Shown in pieces: positions 34,862 to 42,543 of a stretch of DNA of 42,543 bases (position 1 is its first letter; each line of letters starts with the position of its first letter). Source of the stretch: Bacilli bacterium (GTDB lineage Bacteria > Bacillota_I > Bacilli_A > RF39 > UBA660); assembly GCA_030531695.1 (NCBI GenBank), contig JAUNMV010000008.1:1-42543 (forward strand). The letters are read 5' to 3'. Under the pieces are notes generated by a model that saw only the letters and a program-made list of their open reading frames with translations, searched no databases and was not told the DNA's origin. Position numbers and translations under genes: made by a program.

Positions 34862-34870
34862 TAAAACAAA

Positions 34871-34892
34871 AAAGAAGTATTTCTACTTCTTT
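34871..34892 (-). terminator. Terminator of pilin module C
   Basis: Arms AAAGAAGTA (34871-34879) and TACTTCTTT (34884-34892) with a GAAA loop on the minus strand. It is identical in sequence to the terminator at 37281-37302. A run of T follows. Confidence 0.8.
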
Positions 34893-35413
34893 TAATTACC
34901 AATAGTATAAGTAAATTCATAATCTACAGAACTAATAATTTTTACAAATGAACTTTCTTTAATCTTTATCTCTTCACCGGGAGCTATTTTATCTATAGTT
35001 GGAATAGGATTAACAAACTTAGTTCCATCAGACAATATAAATACTACAGAAATATTTAAAGCATTAATAGTATCATTACTATTATTTTTAATAGAAAAAG
35101 TATAAAGAGCTAAATCTTCTTCTGCACCAACTGTAATATTCATATTACTTATAGTAAGATCATCTTTTTTATGTTCTGAAGAAATACTCTCTACTTTATT
35201 AATCATAGAGCCATCTTTTTCTTTAGTATAATTATTAGGATCTATTGAGCTTTGAACTTTATCACCATTTTCATTAATAGTAGTACCATTTTCTATTATT
35301 TCTTTTGAATTATTTTCTTTTACTTTTTCAAAGTAGAAAATATTAATAAATATTCCACAAATAATTAATATAACTCCAATAATAACTATAATTAAACTTA
35401 TCTTATTTTTCAA
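34892..35413 (-). CDS. Small membrane-anchored partner of pilin C
   Basis: One membrane helix near the N-terminus (about residues 4-27) and an outer domain of about 145 residues. The outer part has KEKDGSMINKVESISSEHKK, DLTISNMNITVGAEEDLALY and VVFILSDGTKF. The same features occur in the 180-aa protein at 37302 and, more weakly, in the 157-aa protein at 39748, so the three form a family. The fold recalls FxLYD/DUF-type immunoglobulin-like domains, but no name is certain. The start is TTG at 35413, with AGGTGA before it. An in-frame GTG at 35422 overlaps that site. It follows pilin C with a 22-base gap and is probably cotranscribed. Confidence 0.75.
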   Translation of the reverse strand: MKNKISLIIVIIGVILIICGIFINIFYFEKVKENNSKEIIENGTTINENGDKVQSSIDPNNYTKEKDGSMINKVESISSEHKKDDLTISNMNITVGAEEDLALYTFSIKNNSNDTINALNISVVFILSDGTKFVNPIPTIDKIAPGEEIKIKESSFVKIISSVDYEFTYTIGN

Positions 35414-35435
35414 AAGTATCACCTACCATTTACAA

Positions 35436-37223
35436 TTAAGGTCTTCTCTTATAATAACTATATCCATTAGCACAATTCATTTCTATATAGTTAAGAGCAT
35501 GATCACCATATGGAAGAGTATTATTCCATACATAATTTAAAGCATCTTCAGCTTCCCATCTATTCATATTATAATCAGTAACAACTCTCTTAAACCAACC
35601 ACCGTTCCAATAGAAATCTTCCATTCTTGAACCAGTCCATCCAGCTGCATCAAATACACCAACGAATGCACTAACTCTATATTCACCAGCATGTCCTGTA
35701 CAAACCTGACACATTTGATAAGAAATATTAGCATTTAAAGTAACATCTCTAGATGGCATTCTTCCTGGATTATCATTCCATCCATTAAACTGATAGAACT
35801 CTCCAACATAACCTTGAGGATTTAAACCAGTATCAATATTATCTCCAACTTTTACTCTTCTACTATCCCATTCACTTCCCCAAACATTATAATGAACAGT
35901 ATAATAAAGTGATTTCCATTGAGCATATGCAGTAACAGAACCAGATGAAGCAATATTCTTTACATTTGCACCTACACCATAATTATTACCATTAATTTTC
36001 CAACCGGTAAATTCATGTCCATCTCTACTATAACCATTATTATTTAATATACAATCATATCCATAATAACATGTAGTAGTTGAAACATTACCAGAACCGC
36101 CATTCGCATCATATCTAACTTCAAATGTAGTAGAAATATATACAATTACATCTACTGATCTACAGTTGGAAGCCTCATCACACATCTTTATTCTTTGATA
36201 TCTTGCTCCTGCTGCAGATAAAGTATCATCATTTAAACTATTATTTTCTTTTTTTCTACTAGAGTGTAATTCTTTTACTAAATTAACATTTCCAGAAGCA
36301 TTCCATTCAAATATCTCTTTAGTAATACCATTATTATCATTACTTTCACTTAAATCTATATAGAAACCATGATTTCTCCATTCAGAAAATTTTACTTCTT
36401 CATTTGTTTTTGATACTAAAACATTACCAGTCTTATTACCATTTTCCAATTTATATAACTTAACAGTAATATTTGGAGGAGTATTATCAAGTTTAAATAA
36501 ATTACTTTGTACAGATTCATTAGATATTAAACTAGCCTCATTTCGCAAGTCTACTGGAGTTACAACTAATCTAATATTGCCATTCAAACCAGTAGGAGTA
36601 TCTACTTTTAAAGTTAAACTTTCTTCTACAACATTTTTAAAATTATGAGTAACTGCAGTACCTATAGGAGTACCATCCTCATAAACCCATTGATAACTAA
36701 TTTTAGCATTAGGACTAATACCTAATAAATCAACTATTTGAACATTGGTATAAGAAGATTTTTCAAACTTAGTATTTCCATTAGGTGTAAAAGAAATCTG
36801 TGGCCCTGACTCAGAAATACTATTAGTACATAAATTAAAATCAATTGTTGGTATTTCATCATCAGTAGGTAAAAAAGTTTCATAAGAATAATTACCATTA
36901 ACTTTCTTAATTCTTACAAATATTTTATCAACATTAATATCTTGTTTGGAAAAATCTAATTCTTCAATAATTTTACTATCAACAAGAGTTGAATAGTATA
37001 TATCCACACAACCAGTTTTTTGATAACCAAATAAATCAACATCTTTAGAATCAGAATAAATCTTTGCTCCTGACTCAATAATTTCTCTATATGAATCTAA
37101 TTTCCTTGAATTAAGCTGATTACTAATAGTACTAATAATAGGTAAAGTAATTAAAGTAACAATACCTAAAACAGTTATAGTTACTAATACTTCAACTAAT
37201 GTAAAACCCTTTCCATTTCTCAT
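35436..37223 (-). CDS. Large prepilin-like surface protein C
   Basis: 595 aa. The N-terminus has a prepilin signal: KGFTLVEVLVTITVLGIVT, with Gly before the cut, Phe at +1 and Glu at +5, then a helix. A pseudopilin-like head with a Cys pair (GCVDIYYSTLV, then FNLC) follows. Next are Ig-like segments (GPQISFTPNG, GISPNAKISYQWVYEDGTPI), an InlB-type repeat (about 370-437, FEVRYDANGGSGN to AYAQWK) and a second similar unit. The tip (about 503-595) has Cys and Trp (MCQVCTGHAGEYRV, NRWEAEDALNYVWNNT) and is related to that of pilin B. It has an extended -10 promoter and GCGGTGA upstream. The prepilin peptidase and the assembly ATPase are not in the window. Confidence 0.8.
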   Translation of the reverse strand: MRNGKGFTLVEVLVTITVLGIVTLITLPIISTISNQLNSRKLDSYREIIESGAKIYSDSKDVDLFGYQKTGCVDIYYSTLVDSKIIEELDFSKQDINVDKIFVRIKKVNGNYSYETFLPTDDEIPTIDFNLCTNSISESGPQISFTPNGNTKFEKSSYTNVQIVDLLGISPNAKISYQWVYEDGTPIGTAVTHNFKNVVEESLTLKVDTPTGLNGNIRLVVTPVDLRNEASLISNESVQSNLFKLDNTPPNITVKLYKLENGNKTGNVLVSKTNEEVKFSEWRNHGFYIDLSESNDNNGITKEIFEWNASGNVNLVKELHSSRKKENNSLNDDTLSAAGARYQRIKMCDEASNCRSVDVIVYISTTFEVRYDANGGSGNVSTTTCYYGYDCILNNNGYSRDGHEFTGWKINGNNYGVGANVKNIASSGSVTAYAQWKSLYYTVHYNVWGSEWDSRRVKVGDNIDTGLNPQGYVGEFYQFNGWNDNPGRMPSRDVTLNANISYQMCQVCTGHAGEYRVSAFVGVFDAAGWTGSRMEDFYWNGGWFKRVVTDYNMNRWEAEDALNYVWNNTLPYGDHALNYIEMNCANGYSYYKRRP

Positions 37224-37248
37224 ACCATCACCGCTATTCTATATATTA

Positions 37249-37257
37249 ATTTTAACA
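37249..37257 (-). promoter_or_regulatory. Promoter of pilin C, extended -10 (TGTTAAAAT)
   Basis: TGT-TAAAAT on the minus strand, 26 bases before the ATG at 37223. The same element stands before pilin B. Confidence 0.5.
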
Positions 37258-37280
37258 TACTAGAATATAAAAAAATATAA

Positions 37281-37302
37281 AAAGAAGTATTTCTACTTCT
37301 TT
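37281..37302 (-). terminator. Terminator of pilin module B
   Basis: Arms AAAGAAGTA (37281-37289) and TACTTCTTT (37294-37302), loop GAAA on the minus strand, then a T-rich run. The stem is the same as at 34871-34892. Confidence 0.8.
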
Positions 37303-37844
37303 TACTTTACATTATATTCAATATCATACTCTATAGCGCCTAATATACTCCTATATTCTTTTCTCTCTATCTTTTTACTTTTACCAGCTTTAAGATTATC
37401 AATTGTAGTAGGAGATCCTATAAGTCTAGAACCATCCTCAAAAATAAATACTATAGAGAATTCTAAATTACTATAATCTTTCTTACCAGTATTTTTTAAT
37501 ACAAAACTGTAATTTGCAAAAAATTCTTCTTCAGAAGCAAGAGTAATATTTAAGTCTTCGACAGTAAAATCATCTTTAGTATGTTTTTTTACTACTTTTT
37601 CACTATTATTAATCATAGAACCATCATCTTTTTTTTCATAATATTCAGATTTAGGTTCACTATCACTAGATTTAGCTTTTCCACTATCAGGATCATATTT
37701 TTTAACAGATATTTCAGTATTATCATTACTTGTTTCTTTACCATTGTCATTAGGCTTAGAGATACTTAGTATATTATAACCAACACCTACTAAAATAAAT
37801 ATAATTCCAATAATTAAAACTACTATAATTATTTTCTTCTTCAT
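37302..37844 (-). CDS. Small membrane-anchored partner of pilin B
   Basis: 180 aa with one N-terminal membrane helix (about residues 4-26), a Ser/Asp/Lys-rich linker, and an outer domain. Shared family features are KKDDGSMINNSEKVVKKHTK, DFTVEDLNITLASEEEF, YSFVLKNTGKKDYSNLEFSI and VFIFEDGSRLIGSPTTIDNL. It is the closest relative of the protein ending at 34892. GAGGTGA stands before the ATG at 37844, 12 bases after the pilin B stop, so the pair is one transcript. It may act as a chaperone, anchor or minor subunit of the pilin; this is a guess from the constant pairing. Confidence 0.78.
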   Translation of the reverse strand: MKKKIIIVVLIIGIIFILVGVGYNILSISKPNDNGKETSNDNTEISVKKYDPDSGKAKSSDSEPKSEYYEKKDDGSMINNSEKVVKKHTKDDFTVEDLNITLASEEEFFANYSFVLKNTGKKDYSNLEFSIVFIFEDGSRLIGSPTTIDNLKAGKSKKIERKEYRSILGAIEYDIEYNVK

Positions 37845-37856
37845 ATAATCACCTCA

Positions 37857-39665
37857 TTAACAAGCCCATGCTCTACATCTAGGAATAGTATCTCCATTAT
37901 CACAACTAATATATCCCCATACTAAGAAGTATGTACCATAAGAAGCTGGAGTATTATTCCATACATAATCAAATACTTGATTAGCTCTCCACCAATTCAT
38001 ATTCTGAGCAGTATGAACTTGCCAATAACCACCCCATCCAATATCAACCATATAAGCATCCCAATATCCAGCTTGTTGGAATTTAGGAATAAATGAAGCT
38101 ACATGATTATATTTCTCATGTCCAGTAACTATTCTACACATATAGTCAGTAATATAAGCTTCTAATGTAATATCATGATCAGGCATAGTACCTGGATTAC
38201 CATTCCACCAATTAAATCTCTTATAATGATTAATTGATCCTTGAGGATTTAGACTACCATCTATACTATCACCATAGTGAAGAGTTCTGGTTGTCCAATT
38301 ACCATTATATCCTGCACCATCGTTTACATGATAATAAACAGTATAATTAATAGCATTCCATTGAGCATATGCAGTAAATGTTTTATTTTGAATAGTTAAA
38401 TTTTTAACACTACCACCTGCATTATAATTAGTACCATCTATTTTCCACTTATTAAAAGTATGACCAGTACGAGAATATCCATTACCAGCTAAATTACAAT
38501 CGTATCCATAATAACATACTGTAGATCCTACACTACCTGATCCACCATTTCCATTATAATCAATTACGAATCTACTAGAAACAGATACTTGTACAGTCTT
38601 AGTAGTACAGTTATCAGCTTCATCACATAATTTAATAGAACCATATCTAACTCCAGGAGCAGTTAAAGTATGATTAGTTATTGGAGTATATGTACCAGAT
38701 CCACCATTTAAAGTAGTATCTAAACTAGTTTTACCAGATTGATTCCAAGACCAAACTTCATTAGTTATACCAACATTATCGGTACTTCTAGTAAAATCAA
38801 AATAATATCCATATGTCTTCCAACCATTTATAGTAACATTACTATTATTACCACTAGCTAAAACTCCACCTGTTCTATTTCCACCACTTTCTTGATATGC
38901 ATCAATATTAACAACAGGTGCAATAGTATCAAGTTTAAATTCATGACTTTGAACTGTTTCTGTAGAAATTAATCCACCCTCATTACTTAAATCAACAGGA
39001 GTAACAACAAGTTTAATCTTACCATTAATTCCATCAGGAGTATCAACTTTTACAGATAATTCTTCAACAATAGTATTCTTAAAATTCTTATTTACTGCGG
39101 TACCTATAGGAGTACCATCCATATAAAACCATTGATAACTAATCTTAGCATTAGGACTAATACCAATTAAATCCTTTATTTTAACATTAGTAAATGATTT
39201 CTTTTCATACCTAGTATTTCCATCAGGTGAAAAAGAAATTTCAGGTCCTGAATCAGAAATAGAACCATCACATAAAGTAAAATCAATTGAAGGAATATCA
39301 TCACTAGTAGGTAAAAAAGTCTCATAACTATAATTATTATTAATCTTTCTAACTCTAACAAATATTTTATCTACAATAACTTTTTGATTAGAAAAATCTA
39401 ATTCTTCAATAATTTTATTAGAAACAAGAGTTGTATAATATACATCAACACATCCAGTCTTTTGATGACCAAATAAGTCCATATCTTTAGAATCTGTATA
39501 TAATTTAGCTCCAGATTCAATTATTTCACCATAAGATTCTAACTTTTTATTATTTAATTGACTAGTAACAACACTAATAACAGGTAAAGTTAATAATGTA
39601 ACTATACCCAAAACAGTAATAGTAACTAATACTTCGACTAATGTAAACCCTTTATAATTTTTCAT
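37857..39665 (-). CDS. Large prepilin-like surface protein B
   Basis: 602 aa. The prepilin signal is YKGFTLVEVLVTITVLGIV with Phe+1 and Glu+5. The head repeats the GCVDVYYTTLV and FTLC Cys pair. Ig-like units follow (GPEISFSPDG, KISYQWFYMDGTPIGTAV, EVWSWNQSGKTSLDTTLNGG). An InlB-type repeat reads RFVIDYNGNGGSGS to AYAQWN, and a related unit is next (TVYYHVNDGAGYNG). The tip is close to that of pilin C (CRIVTGHEKYNHVASF, NWWRANQVFDYVWNNT), ending with several Cys. The ATG at 39665 has GGTGATG before it. Part of the gene (38585-38825) is very similar to pilin A at DNA level. It is cotranscribed with the 180-aa partner. Confidence 0.8.
   Translation of the reverse strand: MKNYKGFTLVEVLVTITVLGIVTLLTLPVISVVTSQLNNKKLESYGEIIESGAKLYTDSKDMDLFGHQKTGCVDVYYTTLVSNKIIEELDFSNQKVIVDKIFVRVRKINNNYSYETFLPTSDDIPSIDFTLCDGSISDSGPEISFSPDGNTRYEKKSFTNVKIKDLIGISPNAKISYQWFYMDGTPIGTAVNKNFKNTIVEELSVKVDTPDGINGKIKLVVTPVDLSNEGGLISTETVQSHEFKLDTIAPVVNIDAYQESGGNRTGGVLASGNNSNVTINGWKTYGYYFDFTRSTDNVGITNEVWSWNQSGKTSLDTTLNGGSGTYTPITNHTLTAPGVRYGSIKLCDEADNCTTKTVQVSVSSRFVIDYNGNGGSGSVGSTVCYYGYDCNLAGNGYSRTGHTFNKWKIDGTNYNAGGSVKNLTIQNKTFTAYAQWNAINYTVYYHVNDGAGYNGNWTTRTLHYGDSIDGSLNPQGSINHYKRFNWWNGNPGTMPDHDITLEAYITDYMCRIVTGHEKYNHVASFIPKFQQAGYWDAYMVDIGWGGYWQVHTAQNMNWWRANQVFDYVWNNTPASYGTYFLVWGYISCDNGDTIPRCRAWAC
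38585..38825 (-). repeat. Segment of pilin B nearly identical to a segment of pilin A
   Basis: This stretch matches 41396-41638 in order and spacing with few changes. At 38771-38823 versus 41582-41634 only two bases differ by eye. It encodes the Ig-like part LDTTLNGGSGT to KLCDEADNC. Confidence 0.6.
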
Positions 39666-39690
39666 ATTATACATCACCCTATCATATATT

Positions 39691-39699
39691 ATTTTAACA
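39691..39699 (-). promoter_or_regulatory. Promoter of pilin B, extended -10 (TGTTAAAAT)
   Basis: TGT-TAAAAT on the minus strand, 26 bases before the ATG at 39665. Confidence 0.5.
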
Positions 39700-39723
39700 A
39701 ATTATTAATAATAATTAAATAAA

Positions 39724-39745
39724 AAAGAAGATAAAAATCTTCTTT
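39724..39745 (-). terminator. Terminator of pilin module A
   Basis: Arms AAAGAAGAT (39724-39732) and ATCTTCTTT (39737-39745) with a 4-base loop, then a T-run on the minus strand. It is similar to, but not identical with, the terminators of modules B and C. Confidence 0.75.
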
Positions 39746-39747
39746 TT

Positions 39748-40221
39748 TTAATAACCAATATCAAATGCATCATCTGATTTAACTACTTCTAATTTATAAT
39801 CATAGAAATTAGTTTTATCAAGGATAATAGTCTTTTCCATATTAACACTATCTCCTGCTTTTAAACGATAGAAATTAAATGTTCTCTCTATACTACCATC
39901 TTCATCATTTTCATATAAAAACGTAAGTACTACTTGTCCATATTCAATTGGCTCTTTATCATCATTTGTTACTGTAAATGATACTTTGTATCCTTTAGAA
40001 TCTCCTAATTCAACACCTTCAACAGTAGTTTCTTCTATTTTAACATTATCTATAGAAACACCATCTTTAGTATGTTTCTCATTTAATCGATATTCTTTTT
40101 CATTAACAGGTTCTTTAGGAGTATCTTTAGTAATAATACTAGAATATATTGCAACACCAATTAAAGAAAATGCAACAAATATTATAACTATTAATAATAT
40201 TTTAATGAAATTCTTTTTCAT
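39748..40221 (-). CDS. Small membrane-anchored partner of pilin A
   Basis: 157 aa with one membrane helix (about residues 7-29) and an outer domain. It shares with the other two partners the place in the module, the HTKD motif (NEKHTKDGVSIDNVKIE) and the pattern VTNDDKEPIEYGQVVLTFLYENDEDG, but is more divergent and shorter in the linker. Near the end RLKAGDSVNMEKTIILDK takes the place of the Pro-Thr-Ile-Asp and Gly parts of the others. AGGAGG precedes the ATG at 40221. It lies 12 bases after the pilin A stop. Membership of the family is likely but less sure than for the other two. Confidence 0.72.
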   Translation of the reverse strand: MKKNFIKILLIVIIFVAFSLIGVAIYSSIITKDTPKEPVNEKEYRLNEKHTKDGVSIDNVKIEETTVEGVELGDSKGYKVSFTVTNDDKEPIEYGQVVLTFLYENDEDGSIERTFNFYRLKAGDSVNMEKTIILDKTNFYDYKLEVVKSDDAFDIGY

Positions 40222-40233
40222 TTTCTTTACCTC

Positions 40234-42480
40234 CTAAATTGGATATAGATACATTGCTGAAGACCAACGTGTATTACTATAACAATCTCCCCATCCAGAT
40301 ACATTCCAAGAACTAGAAGAGCCTAAATAACAAGCACAATGATCATACCAACGATCTCTACCACTATGTAGTGTATATCTCCATGTATCAGGTGGTCTCA
40401 TCCAATATGGTCTAACTTTACCATAGTCAGCCCAATCCCAAGTACCAATCCAACATGAATCACCAGTCTCACGACCTCTTATCCAGATATATCCTCCACC
40501 ATCATAAGCCCATGCATTCCAGTCATTATCAGCTTGGAAAGTAGCTCCATCACGCATTGTGAATGAAACTCCACATCCTCTAGAAGGACATTCTCTCATT
40601 GTTAAACCAGCATGATCTGAATAATCAGCAGTATTACTAACGTGGAATCTCTTATTAGGATCAGTCAATGTAATAACAGCATATAAATCTATAGAATTAC
40701 TTAGAGAAATTACTTGTCCCTCAGAGAAATCTTTCCATGAATGTCCAGGATTCCAATTCCATCCTTGATAAGATAATACCCAATCATAATTATAAGAAGG
40801 ACTAGTATCACTCCATCTATTTAATCTAGGGATAGAATCAACTGTTATATTACATGTAGACTCTTGATTCCATACATAGCATGTTTCTCCATCTGTCCAG
40901 TCACCAAACCATTCACCTTTATCACGGTGATAACGTATTGTATAACCACTATTCTTCTTCCAGATAGCATACAAAGTCTTAGGAGAATTAGCAGTATACC
41001 TAGTACCATAACCAGCATCATGAGAACTAGCATTTTCATTCCATCCAACAAATGTATAACCATCTCTTGTAGGTTTAGGTAAATCTAATGGTTGTCCATG
41101 AGTTTTCTTTAATACCTCATAATAACCAGTACCATTACCACCTAAAACAACATCATAAGTAACAGACTTCCATTGAGCATAAGCAGTAAATGTCTTATTC
41201 TCTAAAGTCATATTTGTTATATTAGCACCAGCATTATAATTATTAGAATCAATTTTCCATCCAGTAAATTCATAATCTTGTCTGCTAAAATTATTATTAG
41301 CTAAATTACAAGTAAATCCATAATAACAAGTAGTAGAAGCTACACTACCATTTCCACCATTTGCATTATAATTAATAACATATTTATTTGAAACAGATAC
41401 TTGTACAGACTTAGTAGTACAATTTTCAGCTGTATCACATAGTTTAATAGAAGCATATCTAACTCCACTAGCAGTTAAAGTATGATTAGTTATAGTATTA
41501 AAAGTACCAGAACCACCATTCAAAGTAGTATCTAAAGTACCTTTACCAGACTTATTCCATGACCATACTTCCTTAGCAATACCAACATTATCAGTACTTC
41601 TAGTAAAATCAAAATAATATCCATAAGTCTTCCAATCATTAATTACTATATTACCGTTATTAGCACTAGCTAAAACTCCACCAGTCTTATTACCTCCACT
41701 TTCTTTATAAGCATCAATATTAACAATAGGAGCAGTATTATCTAACTTAAATTCATCACTTTGTACTGCATCTGTTGAAGGCATACTAATCTCATTAGTT
41801 AACTCAATAGGAGTTACAACCAATCTAATCTTTGCATTCATTCCAGTTGGAGTATCAACATTTAAAGATAAACTTTCAGCTACACTATTCTTAAAATTAT
41901 GAGTAACTTCAGTACCTATAGGAGTACCATCAACATAAAACCATTGATATTTAATCTTAGCATTTGGACTAATTCCAAACATATCGTCTATATTAATAGT
42001 TGCAGTTGCCTTCTTCTTCCAATTAGTACCATTAGGAGTAAAAGTAATTCTAGGACCAGAATCAGAAATAGATCCCTCACATAAATTAAAATTAATATCT
42101 GCAATATTATCACTTGTAGGAAAGAATGTTTCATAACTATAATTATCATTTACTTTTTTAACACGTACAAAAATCTTATCAGTAATAATATTTTGTTTAG
42201 AAAAATCTAACTCATCAATAACTTTATTAGATACCAAAGTATTATAGTAAATATCTACACAACCTACAGTTTGATACCCAAATAAATCAAGATCATGTGC
42301 ATCAGTATAAACCTTAGCTCCACTCTCAATAGTATTCTCATAAACATTTAACTTTTTATTATTTAGTTGACTAGAAACAGCGCTTATAACTGGTAATGCT
42401 ATTACAGTAACAATACCTAATACAGTAATAGTTACAAGCATCTCTACTAAAGTAAAACCTTTTTGTTTTCTCATCATCAC
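40234..42480 (-). CDS. Large prepilin-like surface protein A with SH3-like tip
   Basis: About 748 aa, the largest of the three. The prepilin signal reads QKGFTLVEMLVTITVLGIVT with Phe+1 and Glu+5. The head has GCVDIYYNTLV and FNLC. Ig-like units follow, as in pilin B. InlB-type repeats: YVINYNANGGNGS to AYAQWK, then YDVVLGGNGTGYYEV to LYAIWKK, then a Trp-rich third unit (GYTIRYHRDKGEWFGDW). The tip is different: LTMRECPSRGCGVSF, GATFQADNDWNAWAYDGGGY, IWIRG looks like a bacterial SH3 domain, followed by a Trp/Cys-rich end (DHCACYLGSSSSW). The start may be GTG 42480 or ATG 42477 or 42474, all close to AGGGTGAT; GTG is listed. The reading from 42513 starts before the binding site. Confidence 0.78.
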   Translation of the reverse strand: MMMRKQKGFTLVEMLVTITVLGIVTVIALPVISAVSSQLNNKKLNVYENTIESGAKVYTDAHDLDLFGYQTVGCVDIYYNTLVSNKVIDELDFSKQNIITDKIFVRVKKVNDNYSYETFFPTSDNIADINFNLCEGSISDSGPRITFTPNGTNWKKKATATINIDDMFGISPNAKIKYQWFYVDGTPIGTEVTHNFKNSVAESLSLNVDTPTGMNAKIRLVVTPIELTNEISMPSTDAVQSDEFKLDNTAPIVNIDAYKESGGNKTGGVLASANNGNIVINDWKTYGYYFDFTRSTDNVGIAKEVWSWNKSGKGTLDTTLNGGSGTFNTITNHTLTASGVRYASIKLCDTAENCTTKSVQVSVSNKYVINYNANGGNGSVASTTCYYGFTCNLANNNFSRQDYEFTGWKIDSNNYNAGANITNMTLENKTFTAYAQWKSVTYDVVLGGNGTGYYEVLKKTHGQPLDLPKPTRDGYTFVGWNENASSHDAGYGTRYTANSPKTLYAIWKKNSGYTIRYHRDKGEWFGDWTDGETCYVWNQESTCNITVDSIPRLNRWSDTSPSYNYDWVLSYQGWNWNPGHSWKDFSEGQVISLSNSIDLYAVITLTDPNKRFHVSNTADYSDHAGLTMRECPSRGCGVSFTMRDGATFQADNDWNAWAYDGGGYIWIRGRETGDSCWIGTWDWADYGKVRPYWMRPPDTWRYTLHSGRDRWYDHCACYLGSSSSWNVSGWGDCYSNTRWSSAMYLYPI
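41396..41638 (-). repeat. Segment of pilin A nearly identical to a segment of pilin B
   Basis: The counterpart of 38585-38825. The corresponding part of pilin C (about 36120-36420) is clearly more diverged. Confidence 0.6.
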
Positions 42481-42503
42481 ACTCATCACCCTACCATAAA
42501 ATA

Positions 42504-42512
42504 ATTCTATCA
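42504..42512 (-). promoter_or_regulatory. Promoter of pilin A, extended -10 (TGATAGAAT)
   Basis: TGA-TAGAAT on the minus strand, directly after the T-run of the terminator at the window edge and about 25 bases before the start codons. Confidence 0.4.
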
Positions 42513-42520
42513 AAAAAAAA

Positions 42521-42543
42521 GGAAATAATAAATAATTATTTCC
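42521..42543 (-). terminator. Terminator of a gene lying beyond the window
   Basis: Arms GGAAATAAT (42521-42529) and ATTATTTCC (42535-42543) with a 5-base loop, followed by nine T on the minus strand. Another minus-strand gene must end just outside the right edge. Confidence 0.7.

What the first reader, a model, noticed from the sequence alone, without database searches (positions are those of the whole stretch)
34871..42543. Three tandem modules, each a giant prepilin-like protein plus a small membrane partner
Seen: three genes of 595-748 aa all begin with a perfect prepilin signal (KGFTLVE[VM]LVTITVLGIVT), share a Cys-paired head and Ig-like and InlB-type repeats, and end in different Trp/Cys-rich tips. 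Each is followed at 12-22 bases by a small membrane-anchored protein with a shared outer domain. Each module has its own extended -10 and its own terminator. Known: type IV or competence pseudopilins are usually 100-200 aa, and InlB repeats are found in surface adhesins. Inference: a surface fibre or anchored adhesin system in which a pilin N-terminus carries exchangeable adhesive tips, with a dedicated partner. No assembly ATPase, PilC-like protein or prepilin peptidase is in the window.
Basis: partly seen in the sequence, partly recalled or inferred. Interest (0 to 1): 0.78.

Follow-up and report, generated by a model that had tools for sequence, protein, structure and literature searches.

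The report
Giant pilins with matched membrane partners
A Bacilli genome carries three side-by-side gene pairs, each making an oversized pilus-tip protein plus a small membrane protein, and comparison with relatives shows that each membrane protein is matched to the variable far end of its pilin, which suggests a swappable pilus-tip kit with a dedicated helper for each tip.

Summary
Three minus-strand modules each encode a 595-746 aa prepilin and, 12-13 bp downstream, a 157-180 aa single-pass membrane protein. The window is a whole contig of an 81%-complete MAG. The same genome holds three more giant prepilins (709, 962, 1138 aa), each also followed by a small membrane protein, plus PilC and a prepilin peptidase. 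The assembly ATPase PilB is not in the MAG but is in three of its five congeners and nearly every related genome. The giant proteins are modular type IV pilins, a known kind. What looks new is the partner. In a sample of related loci 21 of 30 large prepilins have one (25 of 197 other genes). Partner sequence follows the pilin's C-terminal tip (Mantel r=0.73, n=23; 0.70 after removing head similarity), while heads follow the genome. The partner lacks a class III signal and is modelled as TM helix, linker and beta-sandwich. Best reading: exchangeable pilus-tip cassettes, each with a tip-specific membrane-held escort. Tip ligand and partner mechanism remain inferred. A toxin-immunity reading is not excluded but unlikely. 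New variant of a known kind.

The parts
40234..42474 (-). modular prepilin P0003, 746 aa: class III signal + long helix/pilin module (about 1-120), Ig-like domain (about 139-246), further Ig-like and InlB repeats, Trp/Cys-rich tip type II
   Evidence: module boundaries by homology to the model of P0002
39748..40221 (-). partner of P0003 (P0009, 157 aa): N-terminal TM + extracytoplasmic beta-sandwich domain, no class III signal
   Evidence: 12 bp after the pilin stop
39721..39748 (-). terminator-like hairpin + T-run after module 1
   Evidence: fold -13.4 kcal/mol for 39700-39760
39691..39699 (-). extended -10-like TGTTAAAAT upstream of P0002
   Evidence: sequence; consensus match only
37857..39665 (-). 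modular prepilin P0002, 602 aa, tip type I (C-terminal about 95 aa)
   Evidence: structure model
37302..37844 (-). partner of P0002 (P0008, 180 aa): TM helix 2-28, flexible linker 29-80, beta-sandwich 81-179
37279..37302 (-). terminator-like hairpin + T-run after module 2
37249..37257 (-). extended -10-like TGTTAAAAT upstream of P0001
   Evidence: sequence; consensus match only
35436..37223 (-). modular prepilin P0001, 595 aa, tip type I
34892..35422 (-). partner of P0001 (P0007, 176 aa)
34870..34893 (-). terminator-like hairpin + T-run after module 3, before priA
42504..42512 (-). extended -10-like TGATAGAAT upstream of P0003
   Evidence: sequence; consensus match only
42521..42543 (-). terminator-like hairpin at the contig edge, suggesting another transcription unit upstream

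Best explanation
Each module is an exchangeable tip cassette for a type IV pilus. The large protein is a modular minor pilin: its N-terminal class III signal, long helix and small alpha/beta module let the prepilin peptidase (PilD) process it and the PilB/PilC machine polymerise it, most likely at the filament tip because the 450-1000 aa C-terminal stalk (Ig-like and InlB repeats) and tip would not fit inside a filament. The partner has no class III signal, so it stays in the membrane with its beta-sandwich outside, held on a flexible linker. It recognises the tip or C-terminal part of its own pilin and acts as a membrane-held escort (chaperone or loading factor) that keeps the large stalk-tip folded and close to the assembly machine until it is incorporated. 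Shown by computation: gene pairing, tip-partner co-segregation, predicted topology and fold of the partner, presence of the T4P machinery. Inferred: tip position, adhesion as the function, escort activity.
For: N_methyl cut-off passed by all pilins. Model of P0002: helix 9-59 plus small sheet 70-117 (pLDDT about 80), then Ig-like domain 139-246 (about 92; hits include the giant adhesin SiiE). PilC/GspF-like protein (E 7e-88) next to a Peptidase_A24 gene in the same genome; PilB in 3 of 5 congeners and nearly all related genomes, with two minor-pilin-like genes beside it. All six giant prepilins of the genome have a small membrane-protein gene directly downstream. In the sample 21/30 large prepilins vs 25/197 other genes (Fisher p=1.4e-10), 1/16 mid-size and 0/12 small prepilins. 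Tip-partner Mantel r=0.82, p=1e-4, head-partner r=0.13, p=0.21 for 9 pairs; r=0.73, partial r=0.70 given head, p=2e-4 for 23 pairs. Partner model: TM, linker, beta-sandwich. Precedents for adjacent, envelope-held or pilin helpers of large surface proteins: PilA stabilises the modular pilin PilC in S. sanguinis (PMC9934059), lipoprotein SadB assists surface display of SadA (PMC3953254), DUF916/DUF3324 proteins bind WxL proteins (PMC10599100).
Against: No interaction between partner and pilin was modelled or measured. PilB is not in this MAG. Nine of 30 large prepilins, and most mid-size ones in related genera, have no such neighbour; congener G004 has one giant pilin without a partner (P0018) and one partner without a pilin (P0017). 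Partners of different cassettes are not all homologous (DUF6273-like, PepSY-like, others), which is unusual for one chaperone family. Tip folds are unresolved.
Confidence: 0.42

Rival explanations
1. The partner is a permanent base or receptor: the giant pilin is processed but stays in, or returns to, the membrane, and the partner anchors it there or to the wall as a surface adhesin complex, like WxL-interacting membrane proteins; no long filament is needed.
For: Partner is membrane-held with a beta-sandwich like those of many surface proteins; WxLIP precedent (PMC10599100). No PilT-like second pilus-type ATPase was seen in the genus, only PilB and a Tad/VirB11-type one.
Against: PilB, PilC and PilD are kept in these reduced genomes, which suggests that real assembly takes place; a simple TM anchor would do for a static adhesin.
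Confidence: 0.25
2. The partner co-segregates with the tip because it modifies, senses or regulates it (for example a surface-contact sensor that reads tip engagement), rather than helping assembly.
For: Membrane anchoring, flexible linker and tip specificity fit a sensor as well as an escort.
Against: The partner has only a few residues before the TM and no cytoplasmic signalling domain.
Confidence: 0.1
3. Polymorphic toxin-like system: the variable tips are contact-delivered effectors and the partners are cognate membrane immunity proteins.
For: Variable C-terminal module followed by a cognate small membrane gene, tandem cassettes, an extra partner without a pilin (P0017), tip-partner co-segregation.
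Against: One type-II tip has no partner (P0018). A type-I tip sits on a SipW-type surface protein with no partner gene beside it. No toxin domain in Pfam or NCBIfam.
Confidence: 0.08
4. Coincidence of small membrane genes: neighbours of unrelated function hitch-hiking with the pilins.
For: Type-A domains also occur alone as lipoproteins; 13% of other genes have such a neighbour.
Against: Enrichment p=1.4e-10 and tip-specific co-segregation across species and across different genomic sites, e.g. P0004/P0010 and P0019/P0020 in different neighbourhoods.
Confidence: 0.05

Closest known systems
Modular type IV pilins (Streptococcus sanguinis PilB with vWA module and PilC with lectin module; over 1,200 proteins and 264 architectures listed in PMC8179133)
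   Same: Class III signal and small pilin module with a large functional module grafted at the C-terminus; expected at the pilus tip; monoderm host.
   Different: Here the protein is longer (up to about 1,600 aa in relatives), carries Ig-like and InlB repeat stalks, occurs in tandem with swapped tips, and has its own non-pilin membrane partner.
PilA-PilC of S. sanguinis (PMC9934059)
   Same: A small protein that stabilises a modular pilin.
   Different: PilA is itself a pilin and binds the pilin module; the window partners lack a class III signal and track the tip.
CofB/CofJ and TcpB/TcpF of T4bP (PMC9565799, PMC8179133)
   Same: Large minor pilin with a cognate, co-encoded non-pilin protein.
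   Different: CofJ and TcpF are secreted and carried by the pilus; the window partners are membrane-anchored.
SadB/SadA (PMC3953254) and WxLIP (DUF916-DUF3324)/WxL proteins (PMC10599100)
   Same: Envelope-held beta-sandwich helper encoded beside a large surface protein; chains 4c47 (SadB, Z 7.4, rmsd 11.1 over 125) and 9i25 (WxLIP, Z 6.7, rmsd 3.3 over 86) are among the weak fold matches.
   Different: Carriers are an autotransporter and WxL proteins, not pilins; Z under 8 is not evidence of homology.

Membership tests
Type IV pilins (class III prepilins) | N-terminal G|F(T)xxxE cleavage motif followed by about 20 hydrophobic residues | tested here: met
   PF07963 above cut-off in all three (29.7-37.4 bits); TIGR02532 above cut-off
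Type IV pilins (class III prepilins) | long N-terminal helix packed on a small beta-sheet | tested here: met
   model of P0002: helix 9-59, strands 70-117, pLDDT about 80 in much of it; 7-sequence alignment only
Type IV pilus system | prepilin peptidase in the genome | tested here: met
   Peptidase_A24 above cut-off at G000 C45, next to PilC
Type IV pilus system | platform protein PilC/GspF | tested here: met
   two T2SSF domains in one 502 aa protein; GspF E 7e-88
Type IV pilus system | assembly ATPase PilB | tested here: inconclusive
   not in the 81%-complete MAG; present in G001, G002, G004 of the genus and nearly all related high-quality genomes
Modular pilins (PMC8179133 definition) | extra C-terminal module not specific to T4P biology | tested here: met
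   PF09479 repeats above cut-off in P0001 and P0003; Ig-like domain 139-246 in the P0002 model
Modular pilins | presence in filaments, tip location, ligand binding | not testable with these tools
   needs experiments
Polymorphic toxin-immunity systems | recognisable toxin domain at the variable C-terminus | tested here: inconclusive
   no Pfam or NCBIfam hit in the tips; tip fold unresolved
Polymorphic toxin-immunity systems | cognate immunity gene directly downstream of every toxin | tested here: not met
   P0018 (tip type II) has no partner gene; a type-I tip on a SipW-type protein has none beside it
SPOR domain (tip type I) | profile similarity to SPOR (PF05036) | tested here: inconclusive
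   no Pfam hit; hhalign to four E. coli SPOR domains no better than shuffled columns; a missed remote relative is possible
Bacterial SH3 (SH3b) domain (tip type II) | profile similarity to SH3_3 (PF08239) | tested here: inconclusive
   no Pfam hit; hhalign probability 31% (P 5e-4) against controls of 2% or less

The most novel reading that the evidence does not exclude
The tips are contact-delivered effectors carried by a type IV pilus and the partners are cognate outward-facing membrane immunity proteins: a polymorphic toxin system that uses modular pilins as the carrier.
Probability: 0.07. Interest if true: 0.85.

Novelty: new variant of a known kind. Interest (0 to 1): 0.55.

Why it matters
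How bulky adhesive pilins are folded, selected and loaded at the tip of a type IV pilus is poorly understood. If each giant pilin has a non-pilin membrane helper that reads its tip, this gives a genetic handle on tip loading and shows how reduced-genome bacteria can keep several interchangeable tips on one assembly machine. The prediction (cognate partner binds cognate tip, not the shared head) can be tested directly with purified domains.

Tried and rejected
1) Tips type I as SPOR peptidoglycan-binding domains (my own reading by eye): hhalign to FtsN, DamX, DedD and RlpA gave 0.07-0.2% probability, equal to shuffled columns; dropped, not disproved. 2) Tips type II as SH3b: only suggestive. 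4) Partner relatives in solved structures by sequence: nothing significant. 5) A phage or viral link: tip query found nothing in viral contigs and head query only N-terminal pilin matches. 7) Partner profile A5 over 145 family genomes gave mostly hits to the TM segment only; just the few that cover the outer domain were used. 8) Papers on giant prepilins in RF39/Tenericutes or on chaperones of modular pilins: none found in the held library.

Full report
Observation. The window is one whole contig (C71) of an unnamed MAG of 1.46 Mb, 84 contigs, 80.9% complete, 5.6% contaminated. On the minus strand three modules follow each other and end just before priA: P0003-P0009, P0002-P0008, P0001-P0007. 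All three large proteins carry a class III prepilin signal above the Pfam cut-off, and two have List_Bact/InlB repeats above cut-off. The gaps between pilin and partner are 12-13 bp. Each module ends in an AT-rich hairpin with a T-run, and a fourth hairpin lies at the contig edge. Promoters are only consensus matches.

The genome. N_methyl finds seven prepilins in the MAG: the three in the window, three other giants (709 aa at C33, 962 aa at C72, 1138 aa at C7) and one ordinary 144 aa pilin between uvrC and mutL (gene names here and below are my reading of the translations). Each of the three other giants also has a small membrane-protein gene directly downstream (271, 250 and 136 aa). The C7 pair sits between hisS and an AI-2E-type permease, dtd, relA; a genome of another genus (G152) has a giant pilin and small partner at the same place. 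PilC and the prepilin peptidase are adjacent on C45. The only T2SSE ATPase in the MAG belongs to a Tad-like locus. PilB is found in three of five congeners, beside two minor-pilin-like genes, and in nearly all high-quality genomes of the family. Its absence here is most simply an assembly gap.

Relatives. The 25 sampled genomes of the family (own included) have 4-23 prepilins each, many of 300-1400 aa, whereas the sampled genomes of other families of the class have 0-6. In named records the nearest heads are in uncultured Bacilli MAGs, the best from a water deer colon. In the loci I fetched, 21 of 30 prepilins of at least 550 aa are followed within 60 bp by a gene for a small protein with an N-terminal hydrophobic segment, against 25 of 197 other genes (Fisher p=1.4e-10), 1 of 16 mid-size and 0 of 12 small prepilins. 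The sample is not random: loci were chosen by pilin score, and a few by partner hits, so the p-value is indicative. Mid-size prepilins of other genera mostly stand alone.

Mosaic and co-segregation. Between the window and congener G004 the heads differ (31-39% identity over the first 140 aa) while heads within one genome are alike (70-75% in the window, 60% in G004). The tips do the opposite: P0003 matches G004's 788 aa pilin (47%), P0002 and P0001 match its 636 aa pilin (53 and 41%). Partners follow the tips: P0009-P0014 38%, P0008-P0016 42%. Inside the window P0003 and P0002 share 68-85% of residues over about 240-400, where P0002 and P0001 share mostly 38-42%, although P0002 and P0001 share the tip. 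A Mantel test on nine pairs gives tip-partner r=0.82 (p=1e-4) and head-partner r=0.13 (p=0.21); on 23 pairs r=0.73, and 0.70 after removing head similarity (p=2e-4), against 0.19 (p=0.008) for head-partner after removing tip similarity. The partner is therefore tied to the C-terminal part of the pilin. This is the strongest new result. Pairs are not independent events, since some descend from one another, so the p-values overstate the case somewhat.

Structures. The model of P0002 (7 sequences, mean pLDDT 57) is usable for the first 250 residues only: long helix 9-59, small sheet to 117, and an Ig-like domain 139-246 resembling macroglobulin-type and bacterial adhesin Ig domains, SiiE among them. 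Stalk and tip are unresolved. The model of partner P0008 (3 sequences, mean 66) has a TM helix 2-28, a linker of about 50 residues at low confidence and a beta-sandwich 81-179 with most of it at pLDDT 80-93. Its fold matches are all weak and common (best Z 7.6); helper proteins of surface adhesins (SadB, WxLIP) are among them, which suggests an analogy and no more.

Partner diversity. Window partners and those of G001, G004 and G005 share one outer domain (type A). The C33 partner and its counterpart in G002 are another type (weak DUF6273 match in one); the C7 partner has a weak PepSY-like match. Type-A domains also occur as stand-alone lipoproteins or membrane proteins in other genera. G004 has an extra partner with no pilin (P0017) and a pilin with no partner (P0018). 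A relative of tip type I sits on a SipW-type surface protein with InlB repeats, next to a SipW-like signal peptidase and without a partner, so that tip can occur on another carrier.

Mechanism. Modular pilins with grafted adhesive modules are known and expected at the tip (PMC8179133). In S. sanguinis the pilin PilA stabilises the modular pilin PilC (PMC9934059). The window partners lack the class III signal, so they should not enter the filament; they remain in the membrane with the beta-sandwich outside. Tip specificity, adjacency and anchoring together fit an escort that holds a long, multi-domain pilin ready for incorporation. A static receptor or base is the main rival. A sensor and a toxin-immunity reading are less likely.

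Verdict. Membership in modular type IV pilins is supported on all features that could be tested except PilB in this incomplete genome. The non-pilin, membrane-anchored, tip-matched partner was not found described in the papers I could search, which cover open-licence papers only. I rate it a new variant of a known kind, interest 0.55.

Noticed in passing
L013 3590-11101 (G000:C16): A compact Tad/Flp-like locus: DUF5411 protein, two tandem CpaB/SAF-like proteins, TadA/VirB11-type ATPase, two TadB/TadC-like proteins, a TadZ-like and a VirB2-like small protein; a second, separate pilus-type system in a 1.46 Mb genome.
   Followed up: partly
L221 3404-4447 (G040:C20): SipW-type surface protein with InlB repeats whose C-terminus is homologous to the type-I pilin tip (E 2.5e-12): the same tip module on a different carrier, next to a SipW-like peptidase and an SSB-like gene.
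   Followed up: partly
L215 3-6107 (G114:C11): A repetitive surface protein of over 1,890 aa followed at 15 bp by a lipoprotein with the type-A outer domain: a non-pilin protein with the same kind of partner.
   Followed up: no
L017 6685-7119 (G000:C23) and L148: A small prepilin (144-157 aa) next to mutL in two species (between uvrC and mutL here); candidate major pilin.
   Followed up: no
L136, L138, L140, L143, L147: Tandem small prepilins (about 180 and 210 aa) in all five congeners, upstream of an endonuclease IV-like gene where the downstream side is visible; not found in this MAG, probably for lack of assembly.
   Followed up: no
L165 930-5488 (G020:C24): A 1374 aa prepilin followed by a lipoprotein (not a TM protein) with a type-A-like domain: the partner's anchor seems interchangeable.
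   Followed up: no
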